From contig AZLU01000093.1 in NCBI GenBank assembly GCA_002224055.1, forward strand, positions 86,730 through 150,729: DNA of 64,000 nt, written 5' to 3'. Positions 3,646 to 36,179 of the stretch are shown here, in pieces. The notes under the pieces were generated by a model, which searched no databases, was not told the DNA's origin, and was given only the letters and a program-made list of their open reading frames with translations. Position 1 is the stretch's first letter. Each line of letters begins with the position of its first letter. The stretch comes from Pezizomycotina sp. ARF18 (lineage: Eukaryota; Ascomycota). The position numbers and the translations under genes are program-made.

Positions 3646-3930
3646 ATGAGCCGTAATCACAATCGCCGCCAGGAAAGTGAAGCGGGGTTCGAGGGTCATA
3701 TGCGAATTCTCCACGTGGCCATCATGACTATAATGAGCGGGGTACATCCACGTATTGGTGCGGACGCCGCCAACGCGATTGCGAAAGGCATAGTCGATGA
3801 TGGAGGAGCAGGATGCGACCAATGGGTAGAAATATCGCAACTTTCTGATGCATCGCGTCACCGATGAAATGAGAGTGTATTGATATGCAGGCGTAGACAC
3901 TCGGCCACTACGATTAAGACCGCATGGTTC
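3646..3930 (+). pseudogene. Small-protein family member (copy H), broken
   Basis: Member of the small family described at 24854-25177. The ATG at 3646 opens MSRNHNRRQESEAG. EGHMRILHVAIMTIMS then aligns with EEHIEVFRGAISDVLS of copy F, and AANAIAKGIVD aligns with AEHFAPKIVD. The frame then shifts near 3790. The third frame carries ATNG, a stop, KYRNFLMHRVTDEMRV, matching MTNANRDLTMHDIYDHMK. Coding-like sequence may continue to about 4070 (AVKRVEYFDKLMKNW in yet another frame). It is broken by one shift and two stops. Together with copy A it lies far from the main cluster and on the opposite strand. Confidence 0.5.
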
Positions 3931-4720: not shown

Positions 4721-5750
4721 GTAAACGGTTATAGATGACGGTGCACATGGCTGATTTTTTTTTTCTTTCCGAGATAATAGGTATCTATCTTTCGACTCAA
4801 CATAGAACAGGTTTATGAATACGTGAAGATTTTTAGTTTCGAATAGTCTAGTCGGGTCTTAGGAGGTAAGAGTGGGCCATCTCGAAGCTCCCTGGGTTGT
4901 ATAAATACCGGTAATTCCTAGGCGCCAATTTCAAACTTCAGATTCTAATCCGACTCCCAATCCTCAAGCTCTTTCACATACAGAACGCTGTGGTTTGTGA
5001 GGATTGAGCGCGTTCGCGTATCCGAGTCCTGAGGCATATTTAATAGACATAAAATATCTGTAACCTTTTTTGAGGAGCAGAAAGAAAAACACTATACTCT
5101 GATCATTCTTTTGCTTTGTTGATGTCAATATCGATGGCCATTAGATCTAGAATTCAAAAGCAGCATGCACTAAGCGGCATGTCTTCCGACGCGGCTTAGT
5201 ATATCCTTGCATTTATAGGCTTATTCTCGAACTTGAGTTCGGTTAGCTAGAGATCGAAAATTCTGAAGATTGAAATTGGATGCTTATCCAATTTTAGTTT
5301 ATCCACTACTTTGACAGGATGCCCTGCCATTCAAATGTATCGCAGTTCTCGGCCCTGCATCCTGGCTGCGATAGCCGCTCTCTTGCAGGCCGTTAGGACC
5401 ATACGCTCCTCTATAAGTTATCAATTCTATGATTCGCTTCACGCATCAAGGACTCCGGCACCTTCTGTCGTCTTTTTCTCCCACAAGCCTTATAAAACTA
5501 TCTAACAGCATGTAAGTTGGTATCGAGGCTAAAGTTTCACATGAAGAAATAATTATTCTGTGTGAACGTCGAGAAGAACGTATAAAAGGTCTTCTGGCTA
5601 GTTAATCTGTCTTTCTAATCCATAATCTCGACCTCAGAATCTCAAAGCAAGTCATTGTCAGTTTAAAGTCGCCCGAAGAAACAGATAGCACCCCGGGCCT
5701 ACGACACATCAAAGCTTACAATTCAGCGAATTCTTCTCAGAGAAAGCGCT
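4721..5750. other. Intergenic, no supportable gene
   Basis: No gene seen. Several short open frames lack motifs. This stretch would contain the promoter of copy A downstream, but no clear TATA element stands out. Confidence 0.35.
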
Positions 5751-6195
5751 ATGCCTAACCAAAACCAGCTTGCCCACCTCGCAGCACTTGATCGTTCTGG
5801 CGAAATGCTCTCGTCATCCTCCTGACGGATCTCAGCCCAACACCAACCACGGTACCGCAATGAACATAGCTAACGAGATCGTCGCTAGACGAACTGATAG
5901 AATGTCGCTGCTTACAAACCCACAACGCAATCTGCTAATGCACGAGATATATGGCTACCTAAGGGGCGTAATAGCTTCGCGGCTCGAGAGCTCGGATACT
6001 ACGACTATGATCGGGTTGTTGAGCCGGTCGATGAGTATGATCCAGATGCGTAGGACTGACGGTGCTTGGCACATTATTGCTCGGGCTCGAGATCCCGGGT
6101 ATCGTATGGGAGCTAACTGCGACCGCTACACGTGGATAGTTCATGACTTGAATCGCTGGCTGTGTTGTCATACAGAACTCCCTAAGCACGGATGA
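5751..6195 (+). pseudogene. Small-protein family member (copy A), broken
   Basis: Plus-strand member of the small family. The ATG at 5751 opens MPNQNQLAHLAALDR. One shift later the next frame reads FWRNALVILLTDL, the counterpart of VFRGAISDVLSEIL in copy F. A second shift brings in the frame that stays open to 6195, with ANEIVARRTDRM and then LLTNPQRNLLMHEIYGYL, which aligns with APKIVDVWRKGL and MTNANRDLTMHDIYDHM. The C-terminal third (to PKHG) is longer than in copy F. Two single-base shifts break it as sequenced. The homology is seen in the order and spacing of three motifs. Confidence 0.55.
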
Positions 6196-7022: not shown

Positions 7023-7333
7023 TGCTAGCTATTGGGCATGCCAAGAGGCATGACAAGTCTATAGGCATCGAGGTAATGCTTGTATAGCTGAGGAACAAGG
7101 AACTTCAGCTAGAGATATCAAGATCTCAGCTATAGATGTTAAGGAGATTACGACGATAAGGCTCTGCGAGCCGTCGAGGTAGACTATATATATTATATTA
7201 AGATTATAGTATTATTAGTTTATTATATATAGTATTATATATTCCCTTAGTTAGTCTAGTTAGTTTAGAGTTAAATCTATAAGTTCGATCCTATCCTATA
7301 TTATTAGATATATACCATATATCTACGCTAGCA
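7023..7333 (+). repeat. 5' LTR of copia element
   Basis: Starts TGCTAGCTATT and ends GCTAGCA, giving TG..CA termini. It aligns with 11562-11874 over its full length with about two one-base indels. The remaining differences are C/T or G/A. The outer 100 bases keep many more C and G than the matching part of the 3' LTR. Confidence 0.9.
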
Positions 7334-7351
7334 GGTTATAAGCCTAATTAG
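7334..7351 (+). promoter_or_regulatory. Primer binding site (half-tRNA type)
   Basis: GGTTATAAGCCTAATTAG follows the 5' LTR directly. With one G to A change undone it would read GGTTATGAGCC, complementary to the anticodon arm of initiator tRNA-Met (loop with CAU) rather than to a tRNA 3' end. Drosophila copia is known to prime from such a cleaved tRNA half. The match is seen; the priming mode is inferred. Confidence 0.55.
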
Positions 7352-10300: not shown

Positions 10301-11553
10301 TAGCCTAACTTAATCTTAAATATAAGTAGATAGATATAATAACGGCCTTCTTTATATCTAAACTAAAGTAGAGAATTATCGTTAGGCTTTTAGAAGGGAG
10401 TAAAATTAATAGATTAGTTTAATTAATAAAAACTCTATACGGCCTTAAATAGTTACCTCGAAAATAGTACGGAGAACTTATCTTAGTTTTTAAATTACTA
10501 AAGTTTAAAGTTTATTAGCTCGATAATAGTTATTTATTAGTAAGGATTATTAGCTAATAATAATTATCTATATTAATAATCTATTAATAGCTAGATCTAA
10601 TAAATATAAAGTCGAGATACTTAAGCGAGATCTTAGTTTATACTTTAAGATAAAGGATATAGGGCCGGTAGCTTATTTCTTAGATATATAGATAAAAGAC
10701 TAGGTCTAAAGATCGACGTCGCCTAGTACTATATTAGTCCGTATATATACGATCGCTCCTTAAGAGATTTAGGCTTAAAGATACTTCTAGGATTAATACT
10801 CCTATAGAAAAGAAAAGTATCCTTAAACGAAGGATTAAGATACTATACTAGTAGTATAGTATCGATAGATAGTAAAAAGTTTAATCTATACTTTATTTAC
10901 TAGGCTAACCGATACCTTCGCTATCTTAACGTTAGAGTAATACGTTAGCGAAGTAAACTAAACTTATAAAAAGGTAATAAAAAGTACTATAATATTAGGA
11001 AAATCTCTCGATTATACGCTTACGTATTATACCTATAAGATAGAGGATAAAATATTAGATTATATATCTATATAGACGCCGACTAGGCCGAATATAAGCT
11101 TACTTATAAATCTACTACTAACTATATAATAACGTTTAACGGAATAGCTATCTTATACTATTTAAAAAAGTAATACTATAGCTACTAATAGTATAAGGTA
11201 GAATATATAGCTATAGGGAGGCTTTATAGGAAGCTCTCTAAATACTTTAGATACTAAAGGATATATAGTAGCCTTTAAGTTTAAGGCTCCTAATAATATC
11301 GAGATATATATAATAATTAAAGTACTATTAGTATTATGAAGGATCCTAAATACTATAGTAGAACTAAGTATATCGATATATAATATTATTTTATAAGGGA
11401 ACTAGTTCGAGAAGGAACTATCGAGCCTTATATATAAATCGGAGGATAATATCGCGGATATGCTTACTAAACCGCTTATAAAGATATCTTACGATAGCGC
11501 TATAAAGGCTATAGGTATAAGAAGATAGGATAAAGATTATTAATATTATCGAT

Positions 11554-11561
11554 AAGGGAGG
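11554..11561 (+). promoter_or_regulatory. Polypurine tract of copia element
   Basis: AAGGGAGG immediately before the TG of the 3' LTR, the expected site for plus-strand priming. It retains its G residues although the surrounding DNA is RIP-mutated. Confidence 0.7.
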
Positions 11562-11874
11562 TGCTAGCTATTAAGTATACTAAAGAGGTATAATAAGTCT
11601 ATAGGTATTAAGGTAATACTTATATAGCTAAGGAATAAGGAACTTTAGCTAGAGATATTAAGATCTTAGCTATAGATATTAAGGAGATTACGACGATAAG
11701 GCTCTACGAGCCGTCGAGGCAGACTGTATATATTATATTAAGATTATAGTATTATTAGTTTATTATATATAGTATCGTGTATTCCCTCAGTTAGTCTAGT
11801 TAGTTTAGAGTCAAATCTACAAGTTCGATCCTATCCTATATTATTAGATATCATACCATACATCTGCGCCAGTA
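11562..11874 (+). repeat. 3' LTR of copia element
   Basis: Starts TGCTAGCTATT and ends GCCAGTA; the terminal CA has become TA. The start is strongly RIP-mutated while the last 100 bases retain C/G, the reverse of the 5' LTR. It is followed by GCAAG. Confidence 0.9.
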
Positions 11875-12406
11875 GCAAGAACAGAAAACGTAAGGTCGTA
11901 TTCGGGAATCCAACCGATGATCGAATTAAACGCAATATACGAGCCGGCTGTGGTATACACATCGATCGGCCGCCGGCTCTTGGTGAAGTTTGTGGGCCTG
12001 TATATCGCCCACGGCGTCCCCAAGTGCTCGTACGGCGAACTCATGAACGATCTCGGCTTTAATTACTCCCTGGATTTCGCTGTGCCGAGTAACTTCGGTA
12101 TACCGTGAATGTACAAGTTCAGATCATTCGTGGTGGAGTATAATACGCCGCACGCCCACCGGGAGCGTTAACGAGTCCGTACGACACCGTCGTCTTCAAA
12201 AAGTTTTCTCTAACACAATCCGTATCGCGGCTCTTACATTCCTTAATACCTGTAATATTCTTCCCTTGGGAAATCCCAGAAGAGGTAAGAACGCCCCGCG
12301 TCGTAGTCGATGCTTGCTCGGGCGGGAGGATTGGGCCGGTCGGCGGGCAGTAGGCGAGCACGCCTTCCCCAAAGAGAAAAGACGAGAAAACAGGCGCGAA
12401 GTTCAT
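11875..12406 (-). pseudogene. Beta-lactamase-like serine hydrolase, N-terminal part
   Basis: 5' part of the split gene. The first frame begins at 12406 (MNFAPVFSSF) and reaches CPPTGPILPP, the conserved opening of secreted fungal beta-lactamase-related hydrolases, then FLKTTVSYGLVN. Within about 60 bases the sequence jumps to a C-terminal-domain block: LKPRSF, SSPYEHLGTPWAIYR, DVYTTAGSYIAFNSI, IPEYDLTFSVLA. A normal protein has roughly 250 residues between these blocks, including the catalytic SxxK and YxN motifs, and they are absent. A TAA just before LKPRSF sits where a Trp is expected. The core deletion and the transposon insertion are two separate knock-outs; which came first is not visible. 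Confidence 0.6.
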
Positions 12407-16846: not shown

Positions 16847-17907
16847 ATGCGCTTCACGGTAACAACAACGCAACCCCCCACCCCTCAACCCCCCTCTACC
16901 CCGGCGATCCATCTCCGGCGCCGTAAACTTCTTCTCCCCGCAAGCCGAAGACATCCTCTCCGTCAAGCTCTCCTTCGCCGGCCGCGCAAAATCGAAAATC
17001 ATGACAACCCCTCCAACGGGTCTGGCACCTACACCGAAATCCGCCGAACCGCGACGTCTTCTTCACCTACGACGTAACGTTATACACGGGCACTATACCT
17101 TACGGCAGAACGTGAGTACACGTGGCCGTTCAACTCTTCCCGACAGAAGTAAAAATTACCCTCCGCAGCCTGGACGGTTAAGCTCCCGCGGACCCATACC
17201 GGCTACCGTGGAGAGCCGCCGTGCTCGTTCGAGAGTAATTGCAAGTTCAAAGGTCGGCAGAAGGTTCCTACGGCGCCGTGCAGTACACACTCACCGCCGA
17301 ATCGTCCGACGGGGTACAATAAAAGACCACACGACGGAAGCAGAATGCCAATTGACCGTCCGTAGTTTCCGTCCTGAAATCGTAGACGCGGGATACACGA
17401 CGCAATCGTGGGCTTCAGCGCCGTCGACGTTAGATTATTCCCCGGAATGGAAGACTACACCCCCAGCATAAAAGAACGCATGAAAGAAGCGTTCTCCTCC
17501 AACCCAAAGCCGAAACCATGCCTCGCGGTCGATTTACGGTGCTACTTACCATCCAATCTGGTAATCGGTGAAGGAATGGCGGGGAAAGTATGGATAGAAT
17601 GGTCCGCCGAGCGCTCACGCTTACTCGAATCCGGACGCCCGGTGAACTCGTCAGCGTATCCGCGAACCTCTGGATGCAGACCACCATTACAGCGGGTAGT
17701 ACATTACAAACGGCGCATAATAAAACGGAGAAGTTACTCGCGTACGTATACACTTCCGCGGAGGGAACTGAGATGCAATACGGCGAAGAAAACGCTGTAG
17801 ATTTAAGCGCGCAGATGAGCGAGTATTGGAGTAAGATGGTAGCAGCGGTGTATAGTCCCCAGCTTCGATACGACGACGGTGAGCAGGAGGTACTGGATCG
17901 AGGTTAA
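16847..17907 (+). CDS. Arrestin-like protein, frame-broken as sequenced
   Basis: Fungal arrestin-domain proteins link ubiquitin ligases to membrane transporters and receptors. The ATG at 16847 opens MRFTVTTTQPP. The next blocks lie in alternating frames: ISGAVNFFSPQAEDIL then SVKLSFAGRAKSKI (the arrestin-N GxI-G-V and V-L-F-G-A pattern), RDVFFTYDVTLYTG, EYTWPF, PCSFESNCKFKG, GSYGAVQYTLTAES (PPSF and V-Y-L patterns), FPGMEDYTPSIKERMKEAF, YLPSNLVIGEGMAGKVWIE, then LTRIRTPGELVSVSANLW to a stop at 17907. The order is that of a complete arrestin N domain and the start of the C domain. At least six one-base shifts separate the blocks. Those near 16905 (CC) and 17044 (AA) can be explained by one base lost from a run. 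No PPxY motif seen. It may be intact in the organism. Confidence 0.6.
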
Positions 17908-17909
17908 GG

Positions 17910-18483
17910 TCGTGTGATTGTTTGGGGAAGAAGTGGAAGAAGGAGTTTAGTAGGAACGTTACTGTGCTGCCGGGGATGAGAGGAGGGGTCCGCTGGAGCT
18001 GCCGCCGCCGCCGCCGCCTGTGGAGGAGGGTTGGCAGTGGTAGTGGGTGGGTGGAAGTGAGAAAGGGAGGATTGATGCCGGCTGCGGCGCTGCTGCGTGT
18101 TTCACCGTAGTCACTTTCATTGGTAAAATCTCGTTTCTATTTTCATGGTTTGTATATGGGTCCTTAGGCGTTTTAGGGTTTGCTTCTGGTTTTATGCTTC
18201 ACATTCAGTTAATGGTCTGTTCGGATCCCTGTGCTTCTAGAACAAAGACTGCGTTGCTCTTCCTTCCTCAATACTGTATTTCATAATATACCAATGCTAG
18301 TTTCTAAAACTACTCGAGCAAGTAATTCACAATAACACCATCTCGCCACAATATCCTCAGAAATTGAAAAAATAACCTCACAAACTGCCAACAACTCTCC
18401 TTCTTAACAAAAAGCAACACAGCAACGCAACTATTACATAACCATATTGTTCCATCTGTAATTTTTTCTTCTAAAACCCCGGA
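17910..18483. other. Intergenic, possible arrestin 3' end
   Basis: Contains a Gly/Arg-coding GC-rich patch at 17990-18060 but no recognisable domain. The arrestin C-terminus might continue here in another frame. Confidence 0.25.
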
Positions 18484-18767
18484 TCATAAGCCAAAGGTTC
18501 TCCACAACCGGCTTGAGGAAGTCTACGTCGTCCCGGGGAACGCGATCCATAAGCTGTTTGTCGATCGCGAACCGAATACGTGTGTAAGCAACCAGATGAT
18601 GCCGGTCCTGAGTCGCTGAAGTTTGGCCTTAAACCGGTCTTCCAGCCGTCCGCGATTACAAGGCCGACGTCGGCGGCGCCCGGGTCCTTGAGAGGCCTTT
18701 GCGTATATAACTTGTCGACGGCCCCTTTCAGCCACTTATGGTGCTTGCTCGGTTAGGATACGAGCAT
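18484..18767 (-). pseudogene. Small-protein family member (copy B), broken
   Basis: Minus strand, ATG at 18767, with a stop at codon 5. The frame then runs KHHKWLKGAVDKLYTQ, GLVIADGWKTGL, PNFSDSG. These align with EEHIEVFRGAISDVLSE, KIVDVWRKGL and MTNAN of copy F; IADGW also matches VADGW of copy E. After one shift the next frame continues LVAYTRIRFAIDKQLMD and VDFLKPVVENLWLM, the counterpart of LTMHDIYDHMKMVLDSQ and the C-terminal helix. It is broken by one stop and one shift. Confidence 0.5.
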
Positions 18768-18769
18768 CG

Positions 18770-19500
18770 TGTTTTCTTTTCTTTCTTCTTTTTTTTTTTT
18801 TTTTTTTTTGGATTATGCAGGGACGTGTTCAAGTTTGTAAGTAGGTATTTGGTAATTTGCCTATTGCTGTTCTTTTTTGTCGTTCGAGTTTATGCTTCTA
18901 CTTATCCTGGGAGATAGAAAAAAAAAGCGGCCCGCTTAAGTACTCCTCAGTTCAAGTCGAGGCGACCAAAACCTCCGATTGTATTGATATATAATCTGTA
19001 ATATATTTCACCTCCGTAATAGTAATAGAAAAAAGATGAAGCTGAGATTGAGATGATATAAGAAAGTCTGCCGAATTCATTCTATTGAGACTTGTATATT
19101 GTCGTCGCGCAGAAAGAGAACGCGGGTTTGGCGTTAAGAACGCGCGGAAGGCGCGGCCTGCAGAACGCACGCGATGCCCCCCCCTAGCCCTGCTAAAAAG
19201 TTGTGTATATAAAGAAGCTATTCTCCCTCCTCCTTCGGAGGAGGATAGTCAATGGAACACGACTCGATTTACTCCTATTTACTATACTACTAATATACTA
19301 CCATTAACAGTGTGTTGCTTTCATAGTGACTACGCTCCACCCCGACAATATACCACCGTAACCGGTTTTGATTTTCGTTCGGGACCTGTCAGAAAGCAGC
19401 ACGAGAAATTCTAGCATGAATCTGAACATTCTATCGAAGAATAATTTGTTGACCTTGAATCCTGTATGAAAGCGTATCTATCAAGCTCTATATCAGACGT
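18770..19500. other. Intergenic, no supportable gene
   Basis: A T run lies at about 18788-18810. A short inverted repeat (CTCCTCC-TTC-GGAGGAG) near 19230-19248 could form a hairpin. Confidence 0.3.
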
Positions 19501-19672
19501 CTATGCTAGTTGCTCAACATTTAAATTCACCTTAACAGAACGAGACAAAGCAGCGGGGATCTCGTCTAGTTGAGCCTCCATCAGAATTGTCTGAATGGCC
19601 GTCCGGAATGTCCTGGCTTCTTCAGCGTTTGCGATAGATTAGTGCCAGTGATGTTTCTTCTACGGCTGTCAT
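19501..19672 (-). pseudogene. Small-protein family member (copy C), N-terminal half only
   Basis: The ATG at 19672 opens MTAVEETSLALIYRKR and stops. The next frame continues NAEEARTFRTAIQTILMEAQ and ends at a stop at 19501-19503. EEARTFRTAIQTILME aligns with EEHIEVFRGAISDVLSE of copy F and EEHQGIFKTAIRKFLMD of copy E. The middle W motif and the H-IY-M motif are missing, so it is truncated as well as shifted. Confidence 0.45.
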
Positions 19673-19679
19673 TGTTGAG

Positions 19680-20488
19680 CTGTTCGAAAAGTTTATTTAT
19701 TTAATTGGACTTTTAAGGATTTTCTTTAGTGTCTTCGGTTTATGATCTTAGAGAGCTGAGAGTACGTTGTTTGTTGATTGTGATGAGAGAGGTAGTGTTC
19801 CTTTTCACTGGGAGATGCAAAATGGTGTGCTTAATTAGCTTCTGCAGGTAAGCAAAAGTCCAGCACCATACATTAGCTTAAACATATATCTTTAAGTATT
19901 ACGAAAGCTGGAGCTCGAGAAGACGACGTCGGCGTATTTTTGCTCCGGCCTGAGTACCCATATGAAAAACCAGCACACGGACGAAAATTTTCCAGAAGAG
20001 CCTTAAAGAAAAGTCAAAGAACAATCCTGTTTATCGTTATTCAAACCCCTGATCCGCAAGTTTGCAGAGAAATGTCGGTGTGAAGTCATGAGCGGCATTA
20101 GAACATTAACACATACTTCTAGTAATCAATCTATTCCAGTATTATTCCCAACGAAAACCGAAACAGGGTCAAAAAACTGGTCGAGATATCACTTTGGAAA
20201 GTTCCCGTGTTATCATCTCATCGAGCTTTAGTTTTTCCGTAGTATTGTGAAAATATGCACACAACACATGGTCAATCTCAACTTCTGCTGTCCCAAGAGC
20301 TATTTAACCGATCCCTTTTTGCTTCTTCCCAAGGCAAGGGCTAAAATTTCTGTCATTATCATATACAACCGAAGAAAATCAGCTCAGCTCCTAAAAATTA
20401 TAAATTGGACAAAATATCAAATCTCTAACATCTCCCTAGTAACAACTCTTTAACTCCCAGAAACAAAAGATACCAGAAGCAAAACCCC
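19680..20488. other. Intergenic, no supportable gene
   Basis: No recognisable coding region or repeat. Confidence 0.3.
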
Positions 20489-20686
20489 GGACGAGTCCTA
20501 GCGACCGCTATCACCACGGTGCTGAAATATCTCGGCTTCAAGGAGGAAGAGGCCGAGTACAAGAAAAAAAAAAACCTACTTAAGTACTAAGTAGCTCTTA
20601 TGAGAACACTAAACAACTTTACGATCTACTTCTCCCTCGAGGTAGCACCACGATGTTGGGCATCAAGCTTCGATTTAGATCAGTAA
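20489..20686 (+). pseudogene. Small-protein family member (copy I), remnant
   Basis: The only plus-strand copy inside the cluster. One frame reads VLATAITTVLKYLGF, KEEEAEYKKKK, a stop, then VALMRTLNNFTIYFSLEV. It aligns with FRGAISDVLSEILGEEPAEH and, after the W motif, with MTNANRDLTMHDIYDHM. The A run coding KKKK and the stop after LLKY interrupt the middle helix. No start codon is evident. Confidence 0.4.
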
Positions 20687-20820
20687 TAGAGGCTAGATTG
20701 ATAGTTGCCTTTGTACGTAATGCACTACGACGCGCAATTAGTATAAGTATGAGAACGTTTTCCCTGTGATGAAGTTAATTGGGTAGCTATAGCCAGATCC
20801 CGATCTTTCGTAGTGGTCAC

Positions 20821-21060
20821 GAGAAAACAGATAAGGAAGGGAAGGGGGAGAAGGGAAAGGAGAGCGAAGGAGGGGAGAGAAGGGGGGGGGGGGGGTTGAG
20901 AAGAAAAAAGAAAAAAAGGAAAGCAAAATAAGAAAAAAGATAAGGTAGAGAAGAAGATAGAAATAAGAGAGAAAGAAAGGAAAGTAAGACAGAAAAGAAG
21001 GATAAGATAAGCCGATGGAATATACTAGTAGAAAAAAGGAACAAGGGCTGTGATAGATAG
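20821..21060 (+). repeat. Polypurine tract
   Basis: About 240 bases, nearly all A or G on the plus strand, including a run of about 14 G near 20882-20895. There are very few pyrimidine interruptions. It gives artefactual Phe/Ser/Leu open frames on the minus strand. Mirror-like purine tracts can form triplex DNA. It separates copy I from copy D. Confidence 0.8.
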
Positions 21061-21180
21061 ACCGCAGCAAATCTAACAGCTATTTCGATTGAGTGCAGCG
21101 CCCTCTCCTGTTCCATTCCTTTTCCCACCTCTCTCCGGCTTGAAAGTACTCCACGAGCGCCTCAGCGATGTTCCGGATGT

Positions 21181-21575
21181 TCAGGCCCCACCCGACTGGC
21201 GCTCGTAGTAAAGCTGGACGCGGGCCCGCGCGACTTCTCCTCCAGGTGGGACACTCTGCCTGTTCCGCACCCTGTCCAGCAGCTCCTGCGTTATCTCTAG
21301 CCTTGGGACCGCGTCAGCGAGGGCCTCCTTGCTCGGGCGCCTGCCTCGTACATACTCGTAGGCGTTATGTACGAGATATTGTCCAAATGACGTTCATGGC
21401 GATGTTCCTAGTCCCATCGCTATATGAATAAGCGCCCAGCCTCTGTTTCCATGGGCGCTGATTCTGGGAAGACATACGCGATGTAGTCCTCGTCGTACCC
21501 AAGGTCCCGCAAGTGACTCACCAGCGAAGTATGGAAGATACTTTCTTCAAAGCGTGACAACGTATTATGTGACAT
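21181..21575 (-). pseudogene. Small-protein family member (copy D), broken
   Basis: The ATG at 21575 opens MSHNTLSRFEESIFHTSL. The frame runs through VSHLRDLGYDEDY and PMETEAGRLFI to a stop at 21420. The next frame carries AMGLGTSP, a stop, TSFGQYLVHNAYEYVRGR, then PRLEITQELLDRVRNRQ to a stop at 21181-21183. FHTSLVSHLRDLG aligns with FRGAISDVLSEILG, and TSFGQYLVHNAYEYV with TNANRDLTMHDIYDHM. One shift and one stop break it. The 3' half is noticeably GC-rich compared with the other copies. Confidence 0.45.
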
Positions 21576-21579
21576 TGTG

Positions 21580-22685
21580 GTTCTTGAGTTTTGTTGAAGC
21601 ACTGCCCCAAGTTTTGTTTTTCTAAAGGGGTATGGTATTTATGTAGTGGATTTGTGACTTTCGAGGGTGGATTGTTGTTATTTGGTTGAAGCAGGGATGA
21701 AGAGGAGGCCTTTCTTCCCTGGAGATGCAAAAAGCCTTGCTTAAGTAGTCCCTAGAGGAAAGCAAAAATCTGGGATAGCGCGCGAACATGAGCTTTTCTA
21801 GCGAGAAGAGAAGCCTGATCTTACCGAGATAACAACTTGAACTTCAAGCTTATGCTTCAAGATAAAGATTTTCACTTGTTGCTTTAGTTTGGGTTTGATC
21901 GCTTGGTATAGGGTGATTCGTGGTACAGAATACTTTAAGAAACACGCACGATATATCTATGAACAGATCAATATTGAAGCAGAAAGGAAGTGTCAGAGGA
22001 CGATCTATTTTACCTTGAGCTTGAACTGTACTCCACAAGTCGGAGGCAGCCGTACGGGCATCACAACAAATCCGCATCAGCTGTGGATTGAATTTGAGGA
22101 GCGTTCCTTTTCAGTGATCGCTCAGCATCCCATTCCTAATCTCACATGATTAGACATTCAGCGGCCTGAATAATATTGATCCTCTAGTCTCGATTGTGTT
22201 ATAAAGCCGCGATTAATTATACCAATCTACTGTATATATAGGGGTTCACAGAGTCCGGAATTTCGGCCTCGGATTTAATCAAGGCTTTTAGTAGCACGGG
22301 CATAGGAAACTTGAGGCAGCGGTACGTAGACGCAACGGATGGAAATATAAGGGTACCCAACCTATATTCAGGCTAGCTCGTGGCGTTGTAAGGCATACAC
22401 TATTCAGCTTCAATCTGTGATAATATGACGTCTCGAAGAAGCATAGCAAGCTCACTACTTTTTATAATGTAGACGTTTATAATCTACATATGGATGAAAT
22501 AATTGTACGCGAAACACGGTTTAATTATATTAACGGGCTTTACAATTTTCTATTTTTTTTTTTCTGCCACAAGAGCGGAGTGAATAGTGCTACTCCTAAT
22601 TAAGAAATCCCGATAACAGCAGCTAGACGCGGGAGGCGCCTCCGAACCCAAGTAACTCCTTAAGGTAGATGTCCTTTCCCAAAGA
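21580..22685. other. Intergenic, no supportable gene
   Basis: No motif-bearing frame. An AT-rich patch lies at 22180-22560. Confidence 0.3.
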
Positions 22686-23115
22686 TCATACCAGATCAAA
22701 TTTGAAGGTGCCTCTTACCAAGAGGAAGAGGGGGAGCGGGTGAAGACGCATATTTCGTTCAGCGCCGCGTTGGCCTTCTTGCAACTTCGCTTGTCGCATT
22801 TCGTCGGTCACGTCAAATTCTACGATCGTCTGAATGAAGGCCTCAATGAAGGCCTCAATGCAAAGCTCTTGCCCGTCGGAATTGACGATGATGCTCTTCA
22901 TCACGTCGTAGAGCACGTGCATTGTGAGGTTCCCGTCGGCGTTCGACATTACGCTCAACTGAAGTTCCCACCCGTCGGCGACCTGGGTAGCAACCCTTCC
23001 AGCGTTCTGGTCCTAATCTGAGGTCCATCAAAAATTTCCTGATGGCAGTTTTGAAAATGCCCTGGTGTTCTTCCCGGCCGGCCTCAAGATTTAGCGTCTG
23101 TCTGTTTGCTGCCAT
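22686..23115 (-). pseudogene. Small-protein family member (copy E), one frameshift
   Basis: The ATG at 23115 opens MAANRQTLNLEAGREEH, then QGIFKTAIRKFLMDL. After one shift near 23010 the frame reads DQNAGRVATQVADGWELQL, VMSNADGNLTMHVLYDVM, then an acidic/helical C-terminus to a stop at 22686. Alignment with copy F covers the F-AI-L block, the W block and the H-xx-Y-xx-M block with near-identical spacing. A 12-base duplication (ATGAAGGCCTCA on the plus strand, 22833-22856) encodes repeated EAFI. The shift looks like one extra base in a GG, the opposite sign from most breaks in the window. Confidence 0.55.
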
Positions 23116-23293
23116 TGCTCTGGTGTGGTCTTTCAAGCAGCTGCGGGGCCTATAGGCCCAATACTACTTACTCTCACGGAGATGTCTTGTCTCATTCACA
23201 AGCGGACTGGGTGGCTATAGATCCAGGATACGATTGCAAGCAGGCAAGCCGGCATGCTAAGGTGAAGTACAATCCCCGTAGGCTCTCGTAACA

Positions 23294-23527
23294 CTACCGT
23301 ACGCTTTCGCCATCTTTCTTAGCATTTAAAAATGTTTCTAGGGACTTCATCGAAAGATAGAGACGTTGTGTCATTGACCTCTTCTCGGTATTGGCTTTGA
23401 TTTGATGTATACATGTAAGATGGAAAGACGTCAAAAGAAGACACCCAACTGGGCTTTGCGTCAAGTACCTCATCAACAATAGAAAGTTATCAAGCGCAAC
23501 CACAGCCGCGCCAGGATCATTTTCCAA
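23294..23527 (-). CDS. Minus-strand ORF next to helical gene, doubtful
   Basis: 77-residue frame (NDPGAAVVALDNFLLLM, later MKSLETFLNAKKDGESVR). It overlaps the stop of the larger frame-broken gene at 23517-24276 and may be its shifted 3' end. No family recognised. Confidence 0.2.
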   Translation of the reverse strand: MENDPGAAVVALDNFLLLMRYLTQSPVGCLLLTSFHLTCIHQIKANTEKRSMTQRLYLSMKSLETFLNAKKDGESVR

Positions 23528-24276
23528 AAAATTCTCCGAGTTTCTTCAGAGTGTCCCCATTTATCGCTTCAAAACTTTTCCAGACATCCCCCAAATTCAA
23601 GAAATTTCCCACATTTACTCCCTGAATGGTGTCAGGTGCATAGTTCAAAATGGCCAAGCCGTAGGCGTCTGTGGCGCCGTAAAGACTTGAAAAGATCTGC
23701 TGCACTTCTTTGTGCGCCCCCTCAGCCCACACCTGAAGCCCGGCAGCCTGAGCGCTGGTAAAGCTTCGCGCTTTGGCTATGTCTTTGACCGAAGCGAGAA
23801 CAGAATCGACGTGCTCGTCGACGGTAGCCTTGAGGTCGGCTTTAAGGCTCGCGCGCGTTTCCCGATGTCAGCTTGCACCGCGTCCCAGTTAGAGGCAACG
23901 CTCTTCGAAATCATACGGCACTCGCCGACGAATCTCTTGAACCTCGTGTGAATGCCTGCGCGAGCTCGTCCGTCTGCGCCTTGTACTCCTTCATAAGCTG
24001 CTGCACCGCTGGCTTTGTTACCGTCTCCCACTCGGTATCGCCCGGGTTCACGGGGTGGATCGGTTGCCAGGTGCCGCTGGTAGTGCTTCCAGCGCCGCCC
24101 CCGGCGCTCTCCGGAACATTGGCATTCTGATCAATAGCCACCGCCTTGAACAGGGAGAAATCGCCATACTCGAGGGCAACTTTTATGTGTTCGGCGCGGC
24201 AGCGTATAGCGTTCGACCACGACTCGTGCGATTTGGGTGCGTGGGCATGGGTGCAGGCATGGGCGTTTTCAGGCAT
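23517..24276 (-). CDS. Helical protein of unknown function, frame-broken
   Basis: Three overlapping frames join smoothly. First MPENAHACTHAHAPKSHESW to MKEYKAQTDELAQAF (from 24276). Then RFKRFVGECRMISKSVASNW and VQADIGKRARAL. Then LKATVDEHVDSVLASVKDIA, SAQAAGLQVWAEGAHKEVQQ, IFSSLYGATDAYGLAIL, and NLGDVWKSFEAINGDTLKKL to a stop at 23517. The joined product is about 240 residues, mostly amphipathic helix, with an early His/Cys stretch and no signal peptide. Two one-base shifts (near 23945 and 23840) break it. It lies inside the small-family cluster and on the same strand as most copies; whether it belongs to that family is not clear. Function unknown. Confidence 0.5.
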
Positions 24277-24279
24277 GAT

Positions 24280-24853
24280 AGGCGGGCAGCCGCCGGGTTT
24301 GATCGTTGTAAGTGCTTATTTTTAATTTTTTAGTTTTTATTTTTCAAAGAACGCAAATACCGAGCAAAGATTTTTAAATTTACGGCTTCTAAGTGGATAT
24401 GGTTACGTTCCTGCGAGGAGACTCGAGAGGAAGAATTGAACTTGAGGATGAAACAGAGAAGATGATTGGGCTATACCTGGACGGATATTCGGCAAGTATT
24501 TATAAAAATAATCCTCAACAAATATACGCCTGGGATGTGACGAACGACTATGCCTTCCTTTTGTCTATTCACTGAGAATCGAAAGTAAGAAATTGGCGCC
24601 CTATTGTCTAGATGTCTCATTAGACCCTAGTGTCTTGTTATGAAGAAAGTATCGAAATCAAGATCACAAAAGTTCCTCAATCGTTATTTTGACGTGCTAT
24701 TACGTACACGGGAATGTACAATGATCAATTGGTAGAAATGCTATACAAAGGCACCATAGATCACCAGTTTGTAAATAATTCTAAGTGTATATATTTATTA
24801 TAGCGCGTACCAGCGTTGTCTCGTATATTGCTCTCTAGTTATAATCGAAGTTA
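24280..24853. other. Intergenic, short plus-strand ORF only
   Basis: A 60-residue plus frame at 24393-24575 (FLRGDSRGRIELEDETEKM) has no support beyond being open. Otherwise AT-rich with no recognisable feature. Confidence 0.25.
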
Positions 24854-25177
24854 CTAGGGCAGGGAAAAGTACCGTTCGCTCGCCACCTCAAAAACTTTGG
24901 TCTCGTCGACTAGGTCAGTGAGATGATACCACCTTTTCAGCCTTGCCTGACTGTCCAGAACCATCTTCATGTGGTCGTATATATCGTGCATCGTGAGATC
25001 CCTGTTCGCATTTGTCATCTGCCCAAGTCCTTTTCTCCAGACATCAACGATCTTCGGTGCAAAGTGTTCTGCAGGTTCTTCTCCTAGAATTTCCGATAAA
25101 ACATCCGAAATAGCGCCCCGGAACACTTCGATGTGCTCTTCAAGGCTCAAGCTCGCATGTTGTCCTGTGTCAGACAT
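24854..25177 (-). CDS. Small-protein family member (copy F), intact, 107 aa
   Basis: Best-preserved member and the reference for the family. It is one uninterrupted frame from ATG 25177 (MSDTGQHASLSL). Blocks: EEHIEVFRGAISDVLSEILG (about residues 13-32), EEPAEHFAPKIVDVWRKGL (33-51), MTNANRDLTMHDIYDHMKM (about 54-72), then LKRWYHLTDLVDETKVFEV. It is probably all-helical and soluble, with no signal peptide or membrane segment. A TATA element (GTATATAAAGGC on the minus strand, about 25338-25349) lies about 165 bases upstream. I do not recognise the family, and no function is assigned. The intact frame beside so many broken relatives suggests this copy is, or recently was, functional. Confidence 0.6.
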   Translation of the reverse strand: MSDTGQHASLSLEEHIEVFRGAISDVLSEILGEEPAEHFAPKIVDVWRKGLGQMTNANRDLTMHDIYDHMKMVLDSQARLKRWYHLTDLVDETKVFEVASERYFSLP

Positions 25178-25337
25178 TGCTTTATTGTGCGTTGGTTTTC
25201 CTTCTTTTCTCTTCTCTTCTCTTTCCTTACTTAGAGCTTGGAATAAAATGTCGATTTTGCTAGCTTACCTTGGCAGATGCTTGCCTTTTCAGCTACCCCC
25301 TTGTTATGCCGTAGGAGATGAGAAGTACAGAAAAGCC

Positions 25338-25349
25338 AGCCTTTATATA
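25338..25349 (-). promoter_or_regulatory. TATA element of copy F
   Basis: GTATATAAAGGC on the minus strand, about 165 bases before ATG 25177. Confidence 0.4.
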
Positions 25350-25656
25350 CTTTGGCCTACACATGTACCAAGCTAGCAAGCTTGTGAGCACAAATATGGA
25401 AAGACTAATTAAATTCAAAGTCATGTCAGTCTATCAGTGAAAATTGATAATCGTTCCGATACATAGACGCAAAGCTTAATTTACTATGAAAATGGGATAG
25501 AGCGAGGTAACGTGGAAACAAGGTACCAAATCATCCAAGTGATTGAAAAGCTACACTTGACAATTTATCCGTCGAAGCATCATGGTTCGGACTCGGAGAT
25601 GTTGGCTAAACTTAACGATGCTAAACGCATAACACTAAAAGAAAGAACTAAGTAGA

Positions 25657-26043
25657 TCATGCCGTTATTTGGTTTCGTATTCCAATCCTCTTCGCCTCAC
25701 GTATGTGCAAGAAATGATTACTAGGGTGCCATCTGCAGTATTGTGGTGACGTGTGTCCCCACTGGAAGGCGGCAGCCTCCCGAAGAAGGCCATCGGGGAT
25801 CCAGTATTCATTATGGTGGTTCAACTGCGTCAGGGAAGCGCCCATCATACTATCGCGGATAGTACGTATCGCATGATTGCACTGAGCATTGTCCCACTGC
25901 CGCAAACTTGACTTCCAGCCTGCGACAATATCTTGCGACGTAGTCAACCAATACTTGGACTGAGTAAGCACTGTACTGAGCAGCACGACGATCGAGTCCG
26001 AGGAAATCTCGATATGACGGTCAAACGGGACACCATGAGACAT
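25657..26043 (-). CDS. Small-protein family member (copy G), open, 128 aa
   Basis: Uninterrupted frame from ATG 26043 (MSHGVPFDRHIEISSDSIVV). Against copy F: DRHIEISSDSIVVLLSTVL for EEHIEVFRGAISDVLSEIL, DIVAGWKSSL for KIVDVWRKGL, and NAQCNHAIRTIRDSMM for NANRDLTMHDIYDHMK. It then has a longer C-terminal tail (YWIPDGLLREAAAFQW). It is more diverged than copies E and F but without stop or shift. No promoter element is clear. Confidence 0.45.
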   Translation of the reverse strand: MSHGVPFDRHIEISSDSIVVLLSTVLTQSKYWLTTSQDIVAGWKSSLRQWDNAQCNHAIRTIRDSMMGASLTQLNHHNEYWIPDGLLREAAAFQWGHTSPQYCRWHPSNHFLHIREAKRIGIRNQITA

Positions 26044-26049
26044 ATTTGC

Positions 26050-29000
26050 ATGTTTCTCCGCCGGATTCCTTGTGCGGCTTTCGACGGGGTCAGTCAGAAC
26101 TTAGTGGTTTACGGTATCAAATGGGTGCTACTACTGCCAGTGGTTCATTGGTGTCCAGATGTCCGATGCAATCTATCGTCCAGAATTCACGCTTTATATA
26201 GTCTTTCCCAGATTTCAAACAGTTTATCATTAAACACAAAATGCTTAAGGAAGTGGTTTCTTGTACGCCTGGTAGCATTAGATTCATGATAGAACTTGAG
26301 GACGAACATAATCGAAGAAGCCACCATTTGCACCTGGTGAAATCGATCGAAATGGACTTGCTCTCAACGAAATCTTTCAAAGTCTACGTTTCAAATATGC
26401 CTGCTACCAAACCATAATCCCGCTGAAAAAACCAAAGATCACAAACCGAAACCCAATGTTTCTCGTCAGTATCGACAGATCGCCTAAGGTCACCTTATCC
26501 GTGTTAATATAGCGGTATATTTCTTCTCATGAACATTCTGAGAAAAGGTAATACAGCACGCTCACTCCGCCATTCTGATAAGCTCAGTCTTCCACGCCCT
26601 GTGATTGATCTTGAACTTCAAACAATAGTGTCTCCTATTGGGAAATTACCCGTACATATTGATATTCACAGGCTTTCCCCTTTTATAAATATCTGGTTAG
26701 CCTCGTGGAACACCCACTATGCTATCCTTCAGTAAGAATTATTTATCCTAGCAGGTATCTTTGGACAATCCACTTTCTCTCGATTAACGAAACGTTGTGG
26801 CGAAACACAATATTAGCCGATCAGGATTTTTATGGATTTATCCCTGTTGAAAGACTGAGGGCGACCTTGATGCGTAACTCAATGTGGGGCGCCGTCAGGT
26901 TTGTATTAGCGACGGCTGCTACCTACCTTCGAGATTCTCATTAGCAAAAGGGGTAGAGAAGTTAGCAACTAGAAGCCCCTACCTCCTTAGGTTCAATTTA
27001 CCACGGAAGGCTAGGAGATTCCCACGCAATTTCTAACTAATTTCCACAAAGTTTCTCCGAATATGCACGGCTGTGACGGTTTTTTCATATTGAGGTCGAG
27101 CTCGACCATGCTCCCCCACGTATCTTTCTCGCCGTATATTTCCTCGGCTGTGGGCCCGAGCGCCGATCGAGAGTAGGACCAAAACCACAGCCGTGGGGTC
27201 ACGAGAAATAGGTCTCTATCGATAAAAATTAATAGAGATATTTTGACCTAAGGACTAGATCACCCTAACAGATTGTGGCTGGACACTTTAGAGGATCATC
27301 CCTGTTTCGTAGTAGAATTACCTGCCTTGCAAAACCGCAAGTCTACAACGTTTTAATCAACGGAGCATGTACAGCCGCCGGTCGTGAGGCAAAATACATG
27401 GAAAAGGCTATAAATAAGTCGCGCTATATCCATTATCAAGGACAAGAGGCAGCCCTGGCGCCGGGCGGTATTTCTTGCCCTATAAGCGCGTCAATTTCCG
27501 AAGATTGTTCTTTCCATGAAAGCAAATGCTGAAACGGTCCGAGAATCCCGGCGTAAGATTGGGGATCTCCGTTGGGATCGTGTAACTATCGCTACGTTTC
27601 TTTTTCGCCGAGCTGAAGTCCGTAGCCTTACATTTCGGTGTTTCCGGGTAGCTTCACGGTCGCCTTATTCATGAGAAACTCGCAGAATTCACCTCACGTC
27701 TTTCCCCCGACAGATATGCAGCACATATAAGAGGCTTAGGCAAAAAAGCCCATCAAGCTCTCCGATTCTTATCCATAAGCGGAATGCATGCCATCGTGAG
27801 TCTGGTATTCTCTCGAAGATCGTGCCTAATTCCAACGCCTCAAACGTCTCGACAGCAAAGAGGAACTCTGCACGATTTCCGCTCATGAAAGCCAACATCT
27901 AGAAACCTCAAACAATACTCGTAGTAGCTGAACATGTCAACAATGACATTGGCAGCGTTGCATCACAAAGTGTTAAACATGTCTATGTTACAGCTATTAA
28001 AACTTCAGCGAAAGGCATTGGCAACTTAAAAAGTCGACAAAACAGACGGTTTGCGTTTTAGATGATGGAAAAAAATTTTTCCACTCCAGACCTGAAGCAA
28101 ATCCGAGAGACTCTTTTCCTTTTTTCTTCCTCTACTATCTCGTCTTATCTCTTAGAGACATTTTTTAATCGAATTTCAAACCAGAAAAGCCAACGGGATC
28201 AAGAATAGGGCTCGTGCCTCGAGTTATAAGTCATTCCACTGGGGTCTATAATGGAATCCAGTCCTTTGTTAATATGCTGCTGGTGCCCTCCTGAGATTGC
28301 GCCTCTCCCAACAACGTGGCTCGCCTCCGGAAATTGATCCGGATTTGGAAAAATCCTTTTGGGCAGGCACGATTGTGATATTTTCGCTCATGAGAAAAAA
28401 TAGCATCCGTTTTGATACCCCGTAATTGCGATGCCGAAGGCAGAAAAGAAGGAGCTTTGGTATGTCTAGCCTTGAGCCGGGCTGTCGAGAAGTTCTCTAG
28501 CTGAAGCCTGTGACGCCTGGGTGGACAGGCAGACCTACCACATGGCAATATTCTTACTGATTCAAGCGTTTGATAAAGACTCCGATTGAAATTTTCAAGG
28601 GACATTGTTCCATCTACACAAGATGAGGATACTCGGCACTGCTTCAAGTCCTTCGAGAAGCATTCCTCCCATAAGTTTCATAACTAAAAAGAAGCGTTCA
28701 GGGCCCCCAAATTCCCAGGGGTGTGAAATTTTTAAAAAGAAGTATCTCTCGGCTACGAGAACCTGAATTGAGATCTTCGGGGGCTCCAATTGCGTCCCTG
28801 AAACGGATAAAGTCGAGAAACCGCTATTTCAGCCAGACGCAGGTGCGTTTAAGGAACGCAATTCTACCCAATCCTACCGCTATTAAGGCAAGTCCTGCTT
28901 ACAATGCACACGCAAGATCTCAACCGTCCCAATAAAGGCGGAAGGAACAAAAGCATAGGTCTTCATTGGGGCTTATAGCAGGGGGCTGCTAAATGTGTCA

Positions 29001-30380
29001 AATTTCACTGCGGGAAAGCGTAAAGTAAACAAAATTCCTCCCGCAATTTCGGCAGGAAATATTTTCCCCACTCAGGCCATAAATTGAGCTATTTTTTTCC
29101 TTCTCTTGTTTTCATCACGACAAGAGAGCGATAGACACCTGACCGTGACACTGTAACTGTAATATGCTCTCCTCTTTTCGTTCTTTCCTCGCTTGTCGAC
29201 GGCTTGACGGCTTGCTACTTAATTAATATATAATAAAATTCGAACGAGACTGTCCGGAAAGTCACAAAAGTGGGGTGATACTTTGCCTTTTCATCGTTTT
29301 CTGCACCATGATCCTTTTTGTATGTCAGTGCACCGCCATCTACTACAAATAAATTTGTAAGAAAACAGGAAAAAGAAAAAAGGAAAAAATTGAACATGGA
29401 TCTATCGATGTCTCGGTTTTTCCGCCTGCTATCTTCAGGGTCAAAATACCAATCTTATGGGTTCTGTGCTTCTGGTCTCTGGCCCTCTTTTCTTCTCCAG
29501 AGTCCAGCCCCGAAGGCCTCCCACGCCTGCAATTGCAGCGAATGCCGCGCCATTACCCTAGAGTTCAGCGTCTATAAACCTGTAACTTCCTAATCGAAGA
29601 CAAGCAAGTGGATCCTACGGCAGCAGCAGCAAGTCATAGGTAGTTTAATACTAGCAGACCTATAAGAGTGTGTGGTCTATAGTGCACAATCGAAAATAGA
29701 TTCAGGGATGTTCCCAAACGTTATAGAAATAGTGACTGATCATGCCGCATGGGGTTATTATTGTTATTTATTATTATTATCGTTTTTCGCTTCCTCCCAC
29801 CGCCTCCAAGAACCTCCAGAAAAGAAAAGGTTACCCAGCTTCGACCATCTTGACGTTGCATCTTATAAATACGAGGATAGACCACCCCAGGCAACAGAAG
29901 AGAAAAGAAAAAAAAAGGAAGAGATGGTTCTACATTAGACGATGATTGATTTGTTATAATGAAAATAGCTAGCGCTGCCCCCAAGAAGAGTGTCAGCGTG
30001 CGCAGGCTCTACGAAGACGCAAAAGCTAGGAAGGGTAGGGATACTGGGATGTAGACGAATTATTCCAAGAAGTGTGTGTTTGACGATCCTTTTTGGATAA
30101 CGACACCTTGCTCCTAGTTCCATTTCCCCCTCGTCATCTTCCCTTCCCTTCGCTTTTTTTTATTTCTTGTCCTTCCTTTAATTTTCCTTTTGACAAATAT
30201 TCCGAATCCCTTTTATCAACTACACATCCTGCTCAAAATTCATGGCAGAGTCCTTCGTAAGTAAAAGATACTATTTCCCCTTTTCTACTAGTAAAGTCAC
30301 AAAGAAAACATGAGCGATGAAAACCGAGAGACCTTGCCCGAAAGTCGAAGAAAGCTAATGGAACGTAAACGCACTCCGAC
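26050..30380. other. Intergenic, 4.3 kb without a supportable gene
   Basis: Read on both strands. Open frames are short (the longest 133 residues at 28246-28647, minus) and have no motif, promoter context or intron signals. A minus frame at 27689-27898 looks slightly protein-like but is unrecognised. Confidence 0.35.
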
Positions 30381-31722
30381 ATGTTACAGCACAACAAATT
30401 CCAACAAACGATCGCGGTCATCACATTTTGCTTCATTGCCATCCGGCTGTATATTCGCTGCTGGGTACGATGGCGGTTCCCCACGCTAAGCGATTACTTC
30501 GTCCTGGCAGCTTGGGGAATGTATTGCACCGCTATCATTGTCGACGAAGTGATTGTTCCGAAGATGGACTTTGAGAACAGCCAGGCCGACGTACTCTGGT
30601 GGAATAAGGTAAATGCGAATGCTTCGACCCAGCCACGACGAGTTGCTATTTCTTACCAGTGGACAAACAGTGAGGGTCAATTGCTAACTTTAGGATTTTC
30701 GTTCCGAAAACAGTGGGTTTATTATTGGCAAATACAATACTTCACGATATACTACTGCATCAAAGCTTCCCTATTACTCTTCTACAACGAGTGGATACCG
30801 AGATCCCTGAACAAGCTATGGATTGCGAACCGCATCCTCATGGTTATTTGCGCAATATGTTACCTTTACCGCCCTCGCCAACGCACTGCGATGCCAACCC
30901 GTCCGTCTTCAGTGGGAAGGGGGTTGCCCACCTGCAAAGGGCCACTGGCTCACCATCTCGACATCCGTTTTGCACCTCTTCACCGACCTCCTAAGTAAGC
31001 AGTCTACCCATCTTCGGCAGAAAAACCCCCCACGCGGATGCGGTAATTTTGTTGTCATTTTGTTCACCTCGCTAACCTCCAGACGATCACCCAAATCAGT
31101 TTACATTCTTCCCGTCTTCGTCCTGTGGTACATGTCCGCCGTCCCCACGCGGAAGAAAATGGGGGCGGCATTTATGTTCCTCCTGGGCATCGTCTCCATT
31201 GTTTTCTCCGCCCTCCGCTTCGGTCTCACGGTATACTACTGGGGCCACCCAAACGGTAAAGTCACCCTGTCCGTAATCTACGTCTCCCAAAACCTTGACG
31301 AAAGCGCGGGTATATTCGTCGTCTGCTGCCCGCAGATCAAACTATTCGTCGGTCGCGTTGTACGATTCTGGAGGAGGAAATATTACGTGTGGACCGGGAA
31401 ACCACTGCCGACCGAGTTCGAAATGTCGAGTATGAAGAATTCGGGACGGACACCGAAGCTTGCGGGTAAAGGGAGCTTGGGGAGTTTATATTCGACTGCC
31501 GGGATGGTTACGAACATTTCATCGCCTGGCATGGACAACGGCGCATATCTGACACTCAAGTCGCCCGTTCAAGAAGAGATCGGGCAGACAGTCTTCCCAT
31601 ACGAGGATGGAACGATGACCCAGGAGGATGTCGAGCGGCTGCAGGTTGAGCAGGCTCGGACAAGACCAAGTCAGGAGCATCACAGCGATGATAGAATAAG
31701 CCGTGGCCATATGCGTATTTAG
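30381..31722 (+). CDS. Fungal rhodopsin-domain integral membrane protein
   Basis: Seven-helix protein of the fungal rhodopsin-domain (Pth11/SAT4-like) class. ATG at 30381. Exon 1 encodes TM1 (TIAVITFCFIAIRLYIR) and TM2 (LSDYFVLAAWGMYCTAII). Intron 30609-30713 has branch TGCTAAC. Exon 2 carries WQIQYFTIYYCIKASLLLFY, RILMVICAI, then CQPVRLQWEGG and HLFTDLL. Intron 30995-31099 has branch CGCTAAC and a split Ile codon. Exon 3 carries ILPVFVLWYM, AFMFLLGIVSIVFSALRF, a last helix near ESAGIFVVCCPQI and a 110-residue hydrophilic tail. Both introns are 105 bp, so the frame reads through them. One shift near 30850 (one extra or two missing bases) breaks exon 2. The usual CFEM domain is absent. The ligand is unknown. 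Confidence 0.7.
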
Positions 31723-36177: not shown

Positions 36178-36179
36178 GG

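What the first reader, a model, noticed from the sequence alone, without database searches (positions are those of the whole stretch)
18484..26043. Clustered, apparently undescribed small-protein family (seven copies here)
Copies B, C, I, D, E, F and G share three ordered blocks: an F/W-xx-A-I-xxx-L helix (EVFRGAISDVL, GIFKTAIRKFL, RTFRTAIQTIL, KWLKGAVDKLY, ATAITTVLKYL), a W block (KIVDVWRKGL, TQVADGWELQL, VIADGWKTGL, DIVAGWKSSL) and an H-xx-Y-xx-M-type block (MTNANRDLTMHDIYDHM, MSNADGNLTMHVLYDVM, MRTLNNFTIYFSL). Two copies (F, G) are open; the others carry stops, shifts or truncation. I know no named family with this pattern. Local birth and death of a short soluble protein gene is typical of fast-evolving accessory genes.
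Basis: partly seen in the sequence, partly recalled or inferred. Interest (0 to 1): 0.8.

Follow-up and report, generated by a model that had tools for sequence, protein, structure and literature searches.

The report
Clustered small helical protein family, fungus
A stretch of DNA that looks like a filamentous fungus holds five to eight old, very unlike copies of one gene for a small helical protein that matched no family I could search; the family looks real but its role is unknown, and its apparently broken copies may partly be errors in the assembly rather than dead genes.

Summary
F (24854-25177 -) and E (22686-23115 -, two frames) are homologous (blastp and phmmer 7e-6). An F+E profile finds G (25657-26043 -) and A (about 5751-6192 +) below 1e-4. 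A frame-tolerant scan with F/E/A/G adds J (3646-3900 +). K, C and D/B (21.4, 19.6, 18.6 kb) are supported only as a set. "I" (20.5 kb) and a guessed "H" (35.9 kb) score like random sequence. So five firm and three possible copies lie in 3.6-26 kb, on both sides of a RIP-mutated LTR element. F/E codons show conserved second positions and exhausted synonymous similarity: old paralogues evolving as proteins. F is modelled as four helices without an obvious signal peptide. Pfam, NCBIfam and PDB sequences give no significant match; PHROGs at best 0.0026. Fungal proteomes could not be searched. "Birth and death" is unproven: GH129 and calpain genes here also change frame without room for introns, so assembly indels may explain the breaks. 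Best guess: a lineage-specific cytosolic helical binding protein; function is not shown.

The parts
24854..25177 (-). Copy F: intact ORF, 107 aa, the reference member; AlphaFold model with helices 12-31, 33-52, 56-80, 86-104
25657..26043 (-). Copy G: intact ORF, 128 aa; low-confidence model whose first three helices come in the same order
22686..23115 (-). Copy E: first helix block in one frame, W and third block in another, in register with F; one frame change and no in-frame stop in the scan alignment
5751..6192 (+). Copy A: scored region 5857-6021 in one frame; an ATG at 5751 and a first-helix-like block upstream in other frames are by eye and have no profile support (19.7)
3646..3900 (+). 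Copy J (new): MS start, first helix and IVD in one frame, third block in another
   Evidence: against:
21374..21575 (-). Probable copy K (scored stretch 21386-21539): MS start and first helix in one frame, W..N..M block in another
19561..19623 (-). Possible copy C: first helix block only
18551..18746 (-). Possible copy D/B: first helix and W block in one frame, further match in another
25344..25349 (-). TATATA 172 nt before the start of F
26195..26200 (-). TATATA 157 nt before the start of G
5581..5586 (+). TATAAA about 170 nt before the putative start of A (a second one lies 90 nt further up)

Best explanation
Shown: a family of small proteins (F 107 aa, G 128 aa) has five firm copies, and three possible ones, in 3.6-26 kb of this window; F and E diverged long ago while evolving as protein-coding genes; F is predicted all-alpha and shows no hydrophobic N terminus or membrane span. 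Inferred: it is a lineage-specific accessory family of a filamentous ascomycete, spread by old local duplication, in a genome where RIP (established knowledge) would mutate similar recent duplicates. Inferred: the proteins act inside the cell as small helical binding modules. A hydrophobic core is held (helix-1 aromatic/Ala-Ile/Leu positions, the W of helix 2, Met/Ile positions of helix 3) while the rest differs from copy to copy, so each copy would bind a different partner or the same one with different strength. Inferred: some of the apparent breaks are assembly indels or recent, so more copies than F and G may work. I put the family's existence at about 0.9 and the binding-module role at about 0.3; the figure given is for the whole statement.
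For: Homology. Coding evolution: of 62 F/E codons 30, 42 and 24 are identical at positions 1, 2 and 3; 11 of 23 shared residues use different codons; NG86 dN 0.58, dS not computable. F/G over 102 codons: 45, 51, 30. The opposite-strand 135-aa ORF over F has no match below E 0.84 in the window other than itself. F model: pLDDT 71.5, pTM 0.62, four helices. F: best 10-residue KD 1.40 in the first 35 residues, best 19-mer 0.53, no Cys. TATA[A/T]A 157-172 nt before F, G and A. RIP: (CpA+TpG)/(ApC+GpT) 0.04 and 0.19 in the bins at 8-12 kb, 1.03-1.20 in the bins that hold the copies. Frame changes in GH129 and calpain.
Against: No partner, expression or phenotype is known. The model of G is poor (pLDDT 54.6, pTM 0.37), so a common fold rests on sequence and on F. 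Foldseek gives nothing with E<=0.001 (best 0.68 in the PDB; 0.33 in BFVD, where one entry without a name reaches TM 0.65 at E 1.4). G and J have a hydrophobic stretch near the N terminus (KD 2.63 and 2.32) and G has two Cys, so export of some members is not excluded. E and K have no TATA[A/T]A in 300 nt upstream, J only TATAAT at 118; the motif is common (0.57 per 300 nt of the window's plus strand), so the boxes are weak evidence. Core and surface were not measured on the model.
Confidence: 0.4

Rival explanations
1. Local birth and death with real pseudogenes: F and G are live, the other copies are dead and decaying.
For: E and J are read in more than one frame, A and K probably too; a stop lies just before J's third block by eye; C is a lone helix block. 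By my count about 5 breaks in about 1169 nt of family alignment against 4 in about 2151 nt of Pfam-matched ordinary genes. The break sites printed (8 short stretches, placed approximately) hold no run longer than four bases, so homopolymer errors are not evident.
Against: No in-frame stop in the scan alignments of accepted copies. GH129 and calpain show the same kind of frame change.
Confidence: 0.35
2. Effector family: the proteins act in a host after unconventional export or through a signal not recognised here.
For: Small, divergent and clustered near a RIP-mutated transposon, as many effector genes are (established knowledge; abstracts of MAX and EKA papers read).
Against: No hydrophobic N terminus and no Cys in F; no effector family of Pfam matches F, G, A or the two E frames at E<=1. 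Organism and host are unknown.
Confidence: 0.15
3. Relic or co-opted piece of a transposon, for example a Gag-like helical domain, spread by transposition.
For: Copies on both strands and on both sides of an LTR element; the W..N..LT..M spacing recalls retrotransposon Gag to my eye (recalled, not a test).
Against: No Gag family of Pfam at E<=1 for F, G, A and the E frames; no Gag or Arc chain among the 50 of 83 Foldseek hits listed or the 5 profile hits. Direct repeats in 18-26.6 kb are at most 50 nt, and F/E synonymous similarity is exhausted, unlike recent transposition.
Confidence: 0.08
4. Chance similarity among short ORFs.
For: C, D/B, K and I alone are near or within noise.
Against: F/E at 7e-6, A and G below 1e-4 with a profile that does not contain them; J above all of 80 shuffles.
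Confidence: 0.03

Closest known systems
Lineage-specific gene clusters of Neurospora (PMC10684091; passages read)
   Same: Clustered genes, paralogues often together, with few or no known domains, in a filamentous ascomycete, in regions with large non-coding spaces.
   Different: Most lie near telomeres and with HET-domain genes. No HET family appeared for the ORFs scanned here (10 each; 113 at E<=0.01), and telomere position cannot be told from 64 kb. Those 670 genes are not one sequence family.
EKA family (Avrk1/Avra10 homologues) of Blumeria (PMC4641428; abstract read)
   Same: A multicopy gene family of an ascomycete, linked there to retrotransposons.
   Different: EKA derives from LINE ORF1 and has more than 1350 homologues; here five to eight copies in one window and no LINE link seen.
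MAX effectors (PMC4624222; abstract read)
   Same: Small proteins of very low mutual identity that may keep one fold.
   Different: MAX proteins are secreted beta sandwiches with a disulphide; F is predicted all-alpha, has no Cys and no hydrophobic N terminus.

Membership tests
Any Pfam family | Score above the family's gathering cut-off | tested here: not met
   F: best PF11053, E 0.043, 14.1 of 25 bits; G, the two E frames and A: none at E<=1. K's first frame and D/B were among the 113 members (E<=0.01), whose three families are calpain, pinin and AvrLm4-7; J, C and K's second frame were not scanned
Any PHROG or NCBIfam family | Significant match | tested here: not met
   PHROGs: best 0.0026 (E frame, 18.8 bits) and 0.006 (G), both of unknown function; NCBIfam: TIGR01531 with A at 12 of 1399.55 bits
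Any family with a solved structure | Significant sequence or fold match | tested here: not met
   F 0.39, G none at E<=10, profile 0.14; Foldseek best 0.68
MAX and other secreted effector families | N-terminal signal peptide | tested here: inconclusive
   Hydropathy only: F has none, G and J have a hydrophobic stretch further in; no signal-peptide predictor was on hand
MAX effectors | Six-stranded beta sandwich with a disulphide | tested here: not met
   F model all-alpha, no Cys in F
Retrotransposon Gag | Match to a Gag profile or fold | tested here: not met
   (50 of 83 hits listed)
Lineage-specific fungal gene family | No homologue outside a narrow clade of fungi | not testable with these tools
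   No fungal collection held. F: no relative in IMG/VR, GTDB genomes, plasmids, phages; G: none in IMG/VR; E frame: none in GTDB genomes
Lineage-specific fungal gene family | Clustered paralogues without known domains | tested here: met

The most novel reading that the evidence does not exclude
An undescribed fungal protein family with a four-helix fold not yet in the PDB, kept as a set of strongly diverged paralogues because RIP mutates similar duplicates, each copy binding a different partner, for example in self/non-self recognition or in fungus-specific regulation.
Probability: 0.12. Interest if true: 0.6.

Novelty: new member of a known kind. Interest (0 to 1): 0.36.

Why it matters
Clustered families without known domains are a large unread part of fungal genomes. 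Here one can be defined from a single window with statistics and a tentative fold, which gives a profile ready for a search of fungal proteomes. It also carries a warning: where ordinary genes of the same contig are out of frame, counts of dead copies are not safe.

Tried and rejected
Copy I and a copy at 35.9-36.3 kb: scores like random sequence; the blastp match of 35923-36330 to F (0.004) takes in F's leader and is not listed by the profiles. Segments 17806-17946 - and 35309-35434 - score as high as or higher than C and D/B and are taken as chance. The averaged profile did not recover J when J was left out and did not list K, C or D/B at 24 or more; I then used HMMER emission scores. The choice of profile was thus made after seeing results. 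Fold searches gave no usable match. Scans for relatives found none, in collections that hold few or no fungi. Literature, eight searches, all seen as listings: the family's kind (10 of 22 papers listed; 8 of 30; 11 of 11; 8 of 24; 6 of 24), its peptides (57, zero papers), EKA (63, 6 of 25), frameshift errors (70, 5 of 5); no listed title or abstract start names such a family. Gag-like reading considered and dropped (see rivals). tRNA scan: none.
Full report
Setting. The window looks eukaryotic and most likely comes from a filamentous ascomycete (inference): it holds matches to a fungal rhodopsin domain, GH129, DUF3455 and calpain and one strongly RIP-mutated block. No whole genome is held, so the work rests on this window and on public libraries that hold few or no fungi.

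The family is real. I cut the window into 2091 stop-to-stop segments of 20 aa or more in six frames and compared all with all: F and E match at 7.0e-6; phmmer gives 6.9e-6. E continues upstream of its W block in another frame, and both pieces align with F without a gap. A profile of F and the two E pieces finds A at 6.5e-5 and G at 7.7e-5. I then wrote a translated aligner that allows frame changes at a penalty. With F+E, A scores 59 and G 50; the best score in each of 60 dinucleotide-shuffled windows averages 37.1, maximum 49.5. With F/E/A/G and HMMER scores, J at 3646-3900 +, outside the given coordinates, scores 72.8 against a maximum of 50.1 in 80 shuffles. J was weak before: 41 with F+E, reached by 7 of 60 shuffles; 0.091 in HMMER; 27.7, below the null mean, with a crude averaged profile.

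Weaker copies. K (42.6 to 47.5), C (about 36) and D/B (35 to 38) lie near or inside the noise of a whole-window search: 10 of 100 shuffles reach 42, and a stretch at 35.3 kb scores 38 to 40. As a set they do better: in 7034 nt of cluster interior without F, E and G they are the only peaks of 30 or more, all on the strand of E, F and G; 1 of 400 shuffles reaches 42, 12 of 400 have two peaks of 35 or more and 0 of 400 has three. Nine overlapping stretches of like length from 27-64 kb have at most two peaks of 30 or more, the best 38.0. K begins with MS like F, G and J, a part not in the profile. Copy I and the 35.9-36.3 kb stretch are not supported.

Mode of evolution. Over 62 aligned F/E codons, 30, 42 and 24 are identical at positions 1, 2 and 3; 11 of 23 shared residues use different codons; NG86 gives dN 0.58 and no value for dS, and YN00 failed; I read this as saturation. 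F/G gives 45, 51 and 30 of 102. Alignment by protein similarity biases this count, most for the weak pairs. The 135-aa ORF on the other strand of F has no match below E 0.84 in the window other than itself. So the minus-strand reading of F is the gene, and the copies are old. Their 2-kb bins show no RIP signature: the index is 1.03 to 1.20 (18-26 kb, and 2-6 kb for J and A), against 0.04 and 0.19 at 8-12 kb.

The breaks. In the scan alignments of accepted copies E has one frame change, J two or three, A none or one, F and G none, and there is no in-frame stop. By eye A has a further change upstream, and a stop lies just before J's third block in that frame. Ordinary genes behave alike. GH129 at 59879-61253 is matched in three frames with overlapping profile ends (2-36, 30-208, 203-323), which leaves no room for an intron; the first of these pieces is below the cut-off (18.2 of 25.6 bits). 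The calpain gene has two such changes (89-166 to 209-245 at a matching distance; 209-245 to 243-294 overlapping), where the 209-245 piece is just below the cut-off (21.2 of 23.8), and one more place where an intron could fit. The rhodopsin gene changes frame once by eye near 30.9 kb. DUF3455 is in one frame. The sites printed hold no run longer than four bases, which speaks against homopolymer errors. I leave open whether the copies are dead.

Protein. AlphaFold with six rows from the window gives F four helices at pLDDT 71.5 and pTM 0.62. G with the same rows has its first three helices in the same order at pLDDT 54.6. F has no hydrophobic N terminus, no membrane span, no Cys and a net charge of -8. 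Foldseek finds nothing with E<=0.001 in the PDB or in viral models; PDB sequence searches find nothing significant. Pfam, PHROGs and NCBIfam give no convincing family. TATA[A/T]A lies 157 to 172 nt before F, G and A; E and K have none in 300 nt and J only TATAAT at 118.

Mechanism. By eye no polar residue is shared by all copies; what is kept is a pattern of hydrophobic positions with, in most copies, a W and an N. I commit to a cytosolic helical binding module of a lineage-specific accessory family; the role is inferred, not shown. The nearest described kind is the clustered lineage-specific genes of Neurospora, with few or no domains, near telomeres and with HET-domain genes (PMC10684091, passages); the HET link was not seen here and telomere position is not testable. 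EKA and MAX effectors (abstracts) differ in origin, copy number, fold or secretion.

Verdict. Useful as material for a fungal proteome search, ordinary as a kind.

Noticed in passing
7023-11874: LTR retrotransposon: direct repeats 91% alike (7043-7311 and 11583-11851), a GCAAG target duplication by eye (7018-7022 and 11875-11879), extreme RIP signature; it separates copies J and A from the rest of the cluster.
   Followed up: partly
59879-61253 -: GH129 glycosyl hydrolase gene read in three frames without room for introns.
   Followed up: partly
53552-54879 -: Calpain (Peptidase_C2) gene in four pieces over two alternating frames.
   Followed up: partly
23520-24315 -: Another helical-looking gene inside the cluster, in several frames; no Pfam, NCBIfam or PDB match for the pieces tried and no similarity to the family.
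   Followed up: partly
30369-31719 +: Fungal rhodopsin-domain (PF20684) gene that changes frame near 30.9 kb by eye.
   Followed up: partly
54996-55577 -: Weak match to AvrLm4-7 (PF18661, E 0.0033, 18.9 of 25 bits), below the cut-off and next to the calpain gene; probably chance.
   Followed up: no
22833-22860: Perfect 12-nt tandem repeat (2.3 units) inside the C-terminal part of copy E.
   Followed up: no
63145-63193: Perfect 24-nt tandem repeat, two copies.
   Followed up: no
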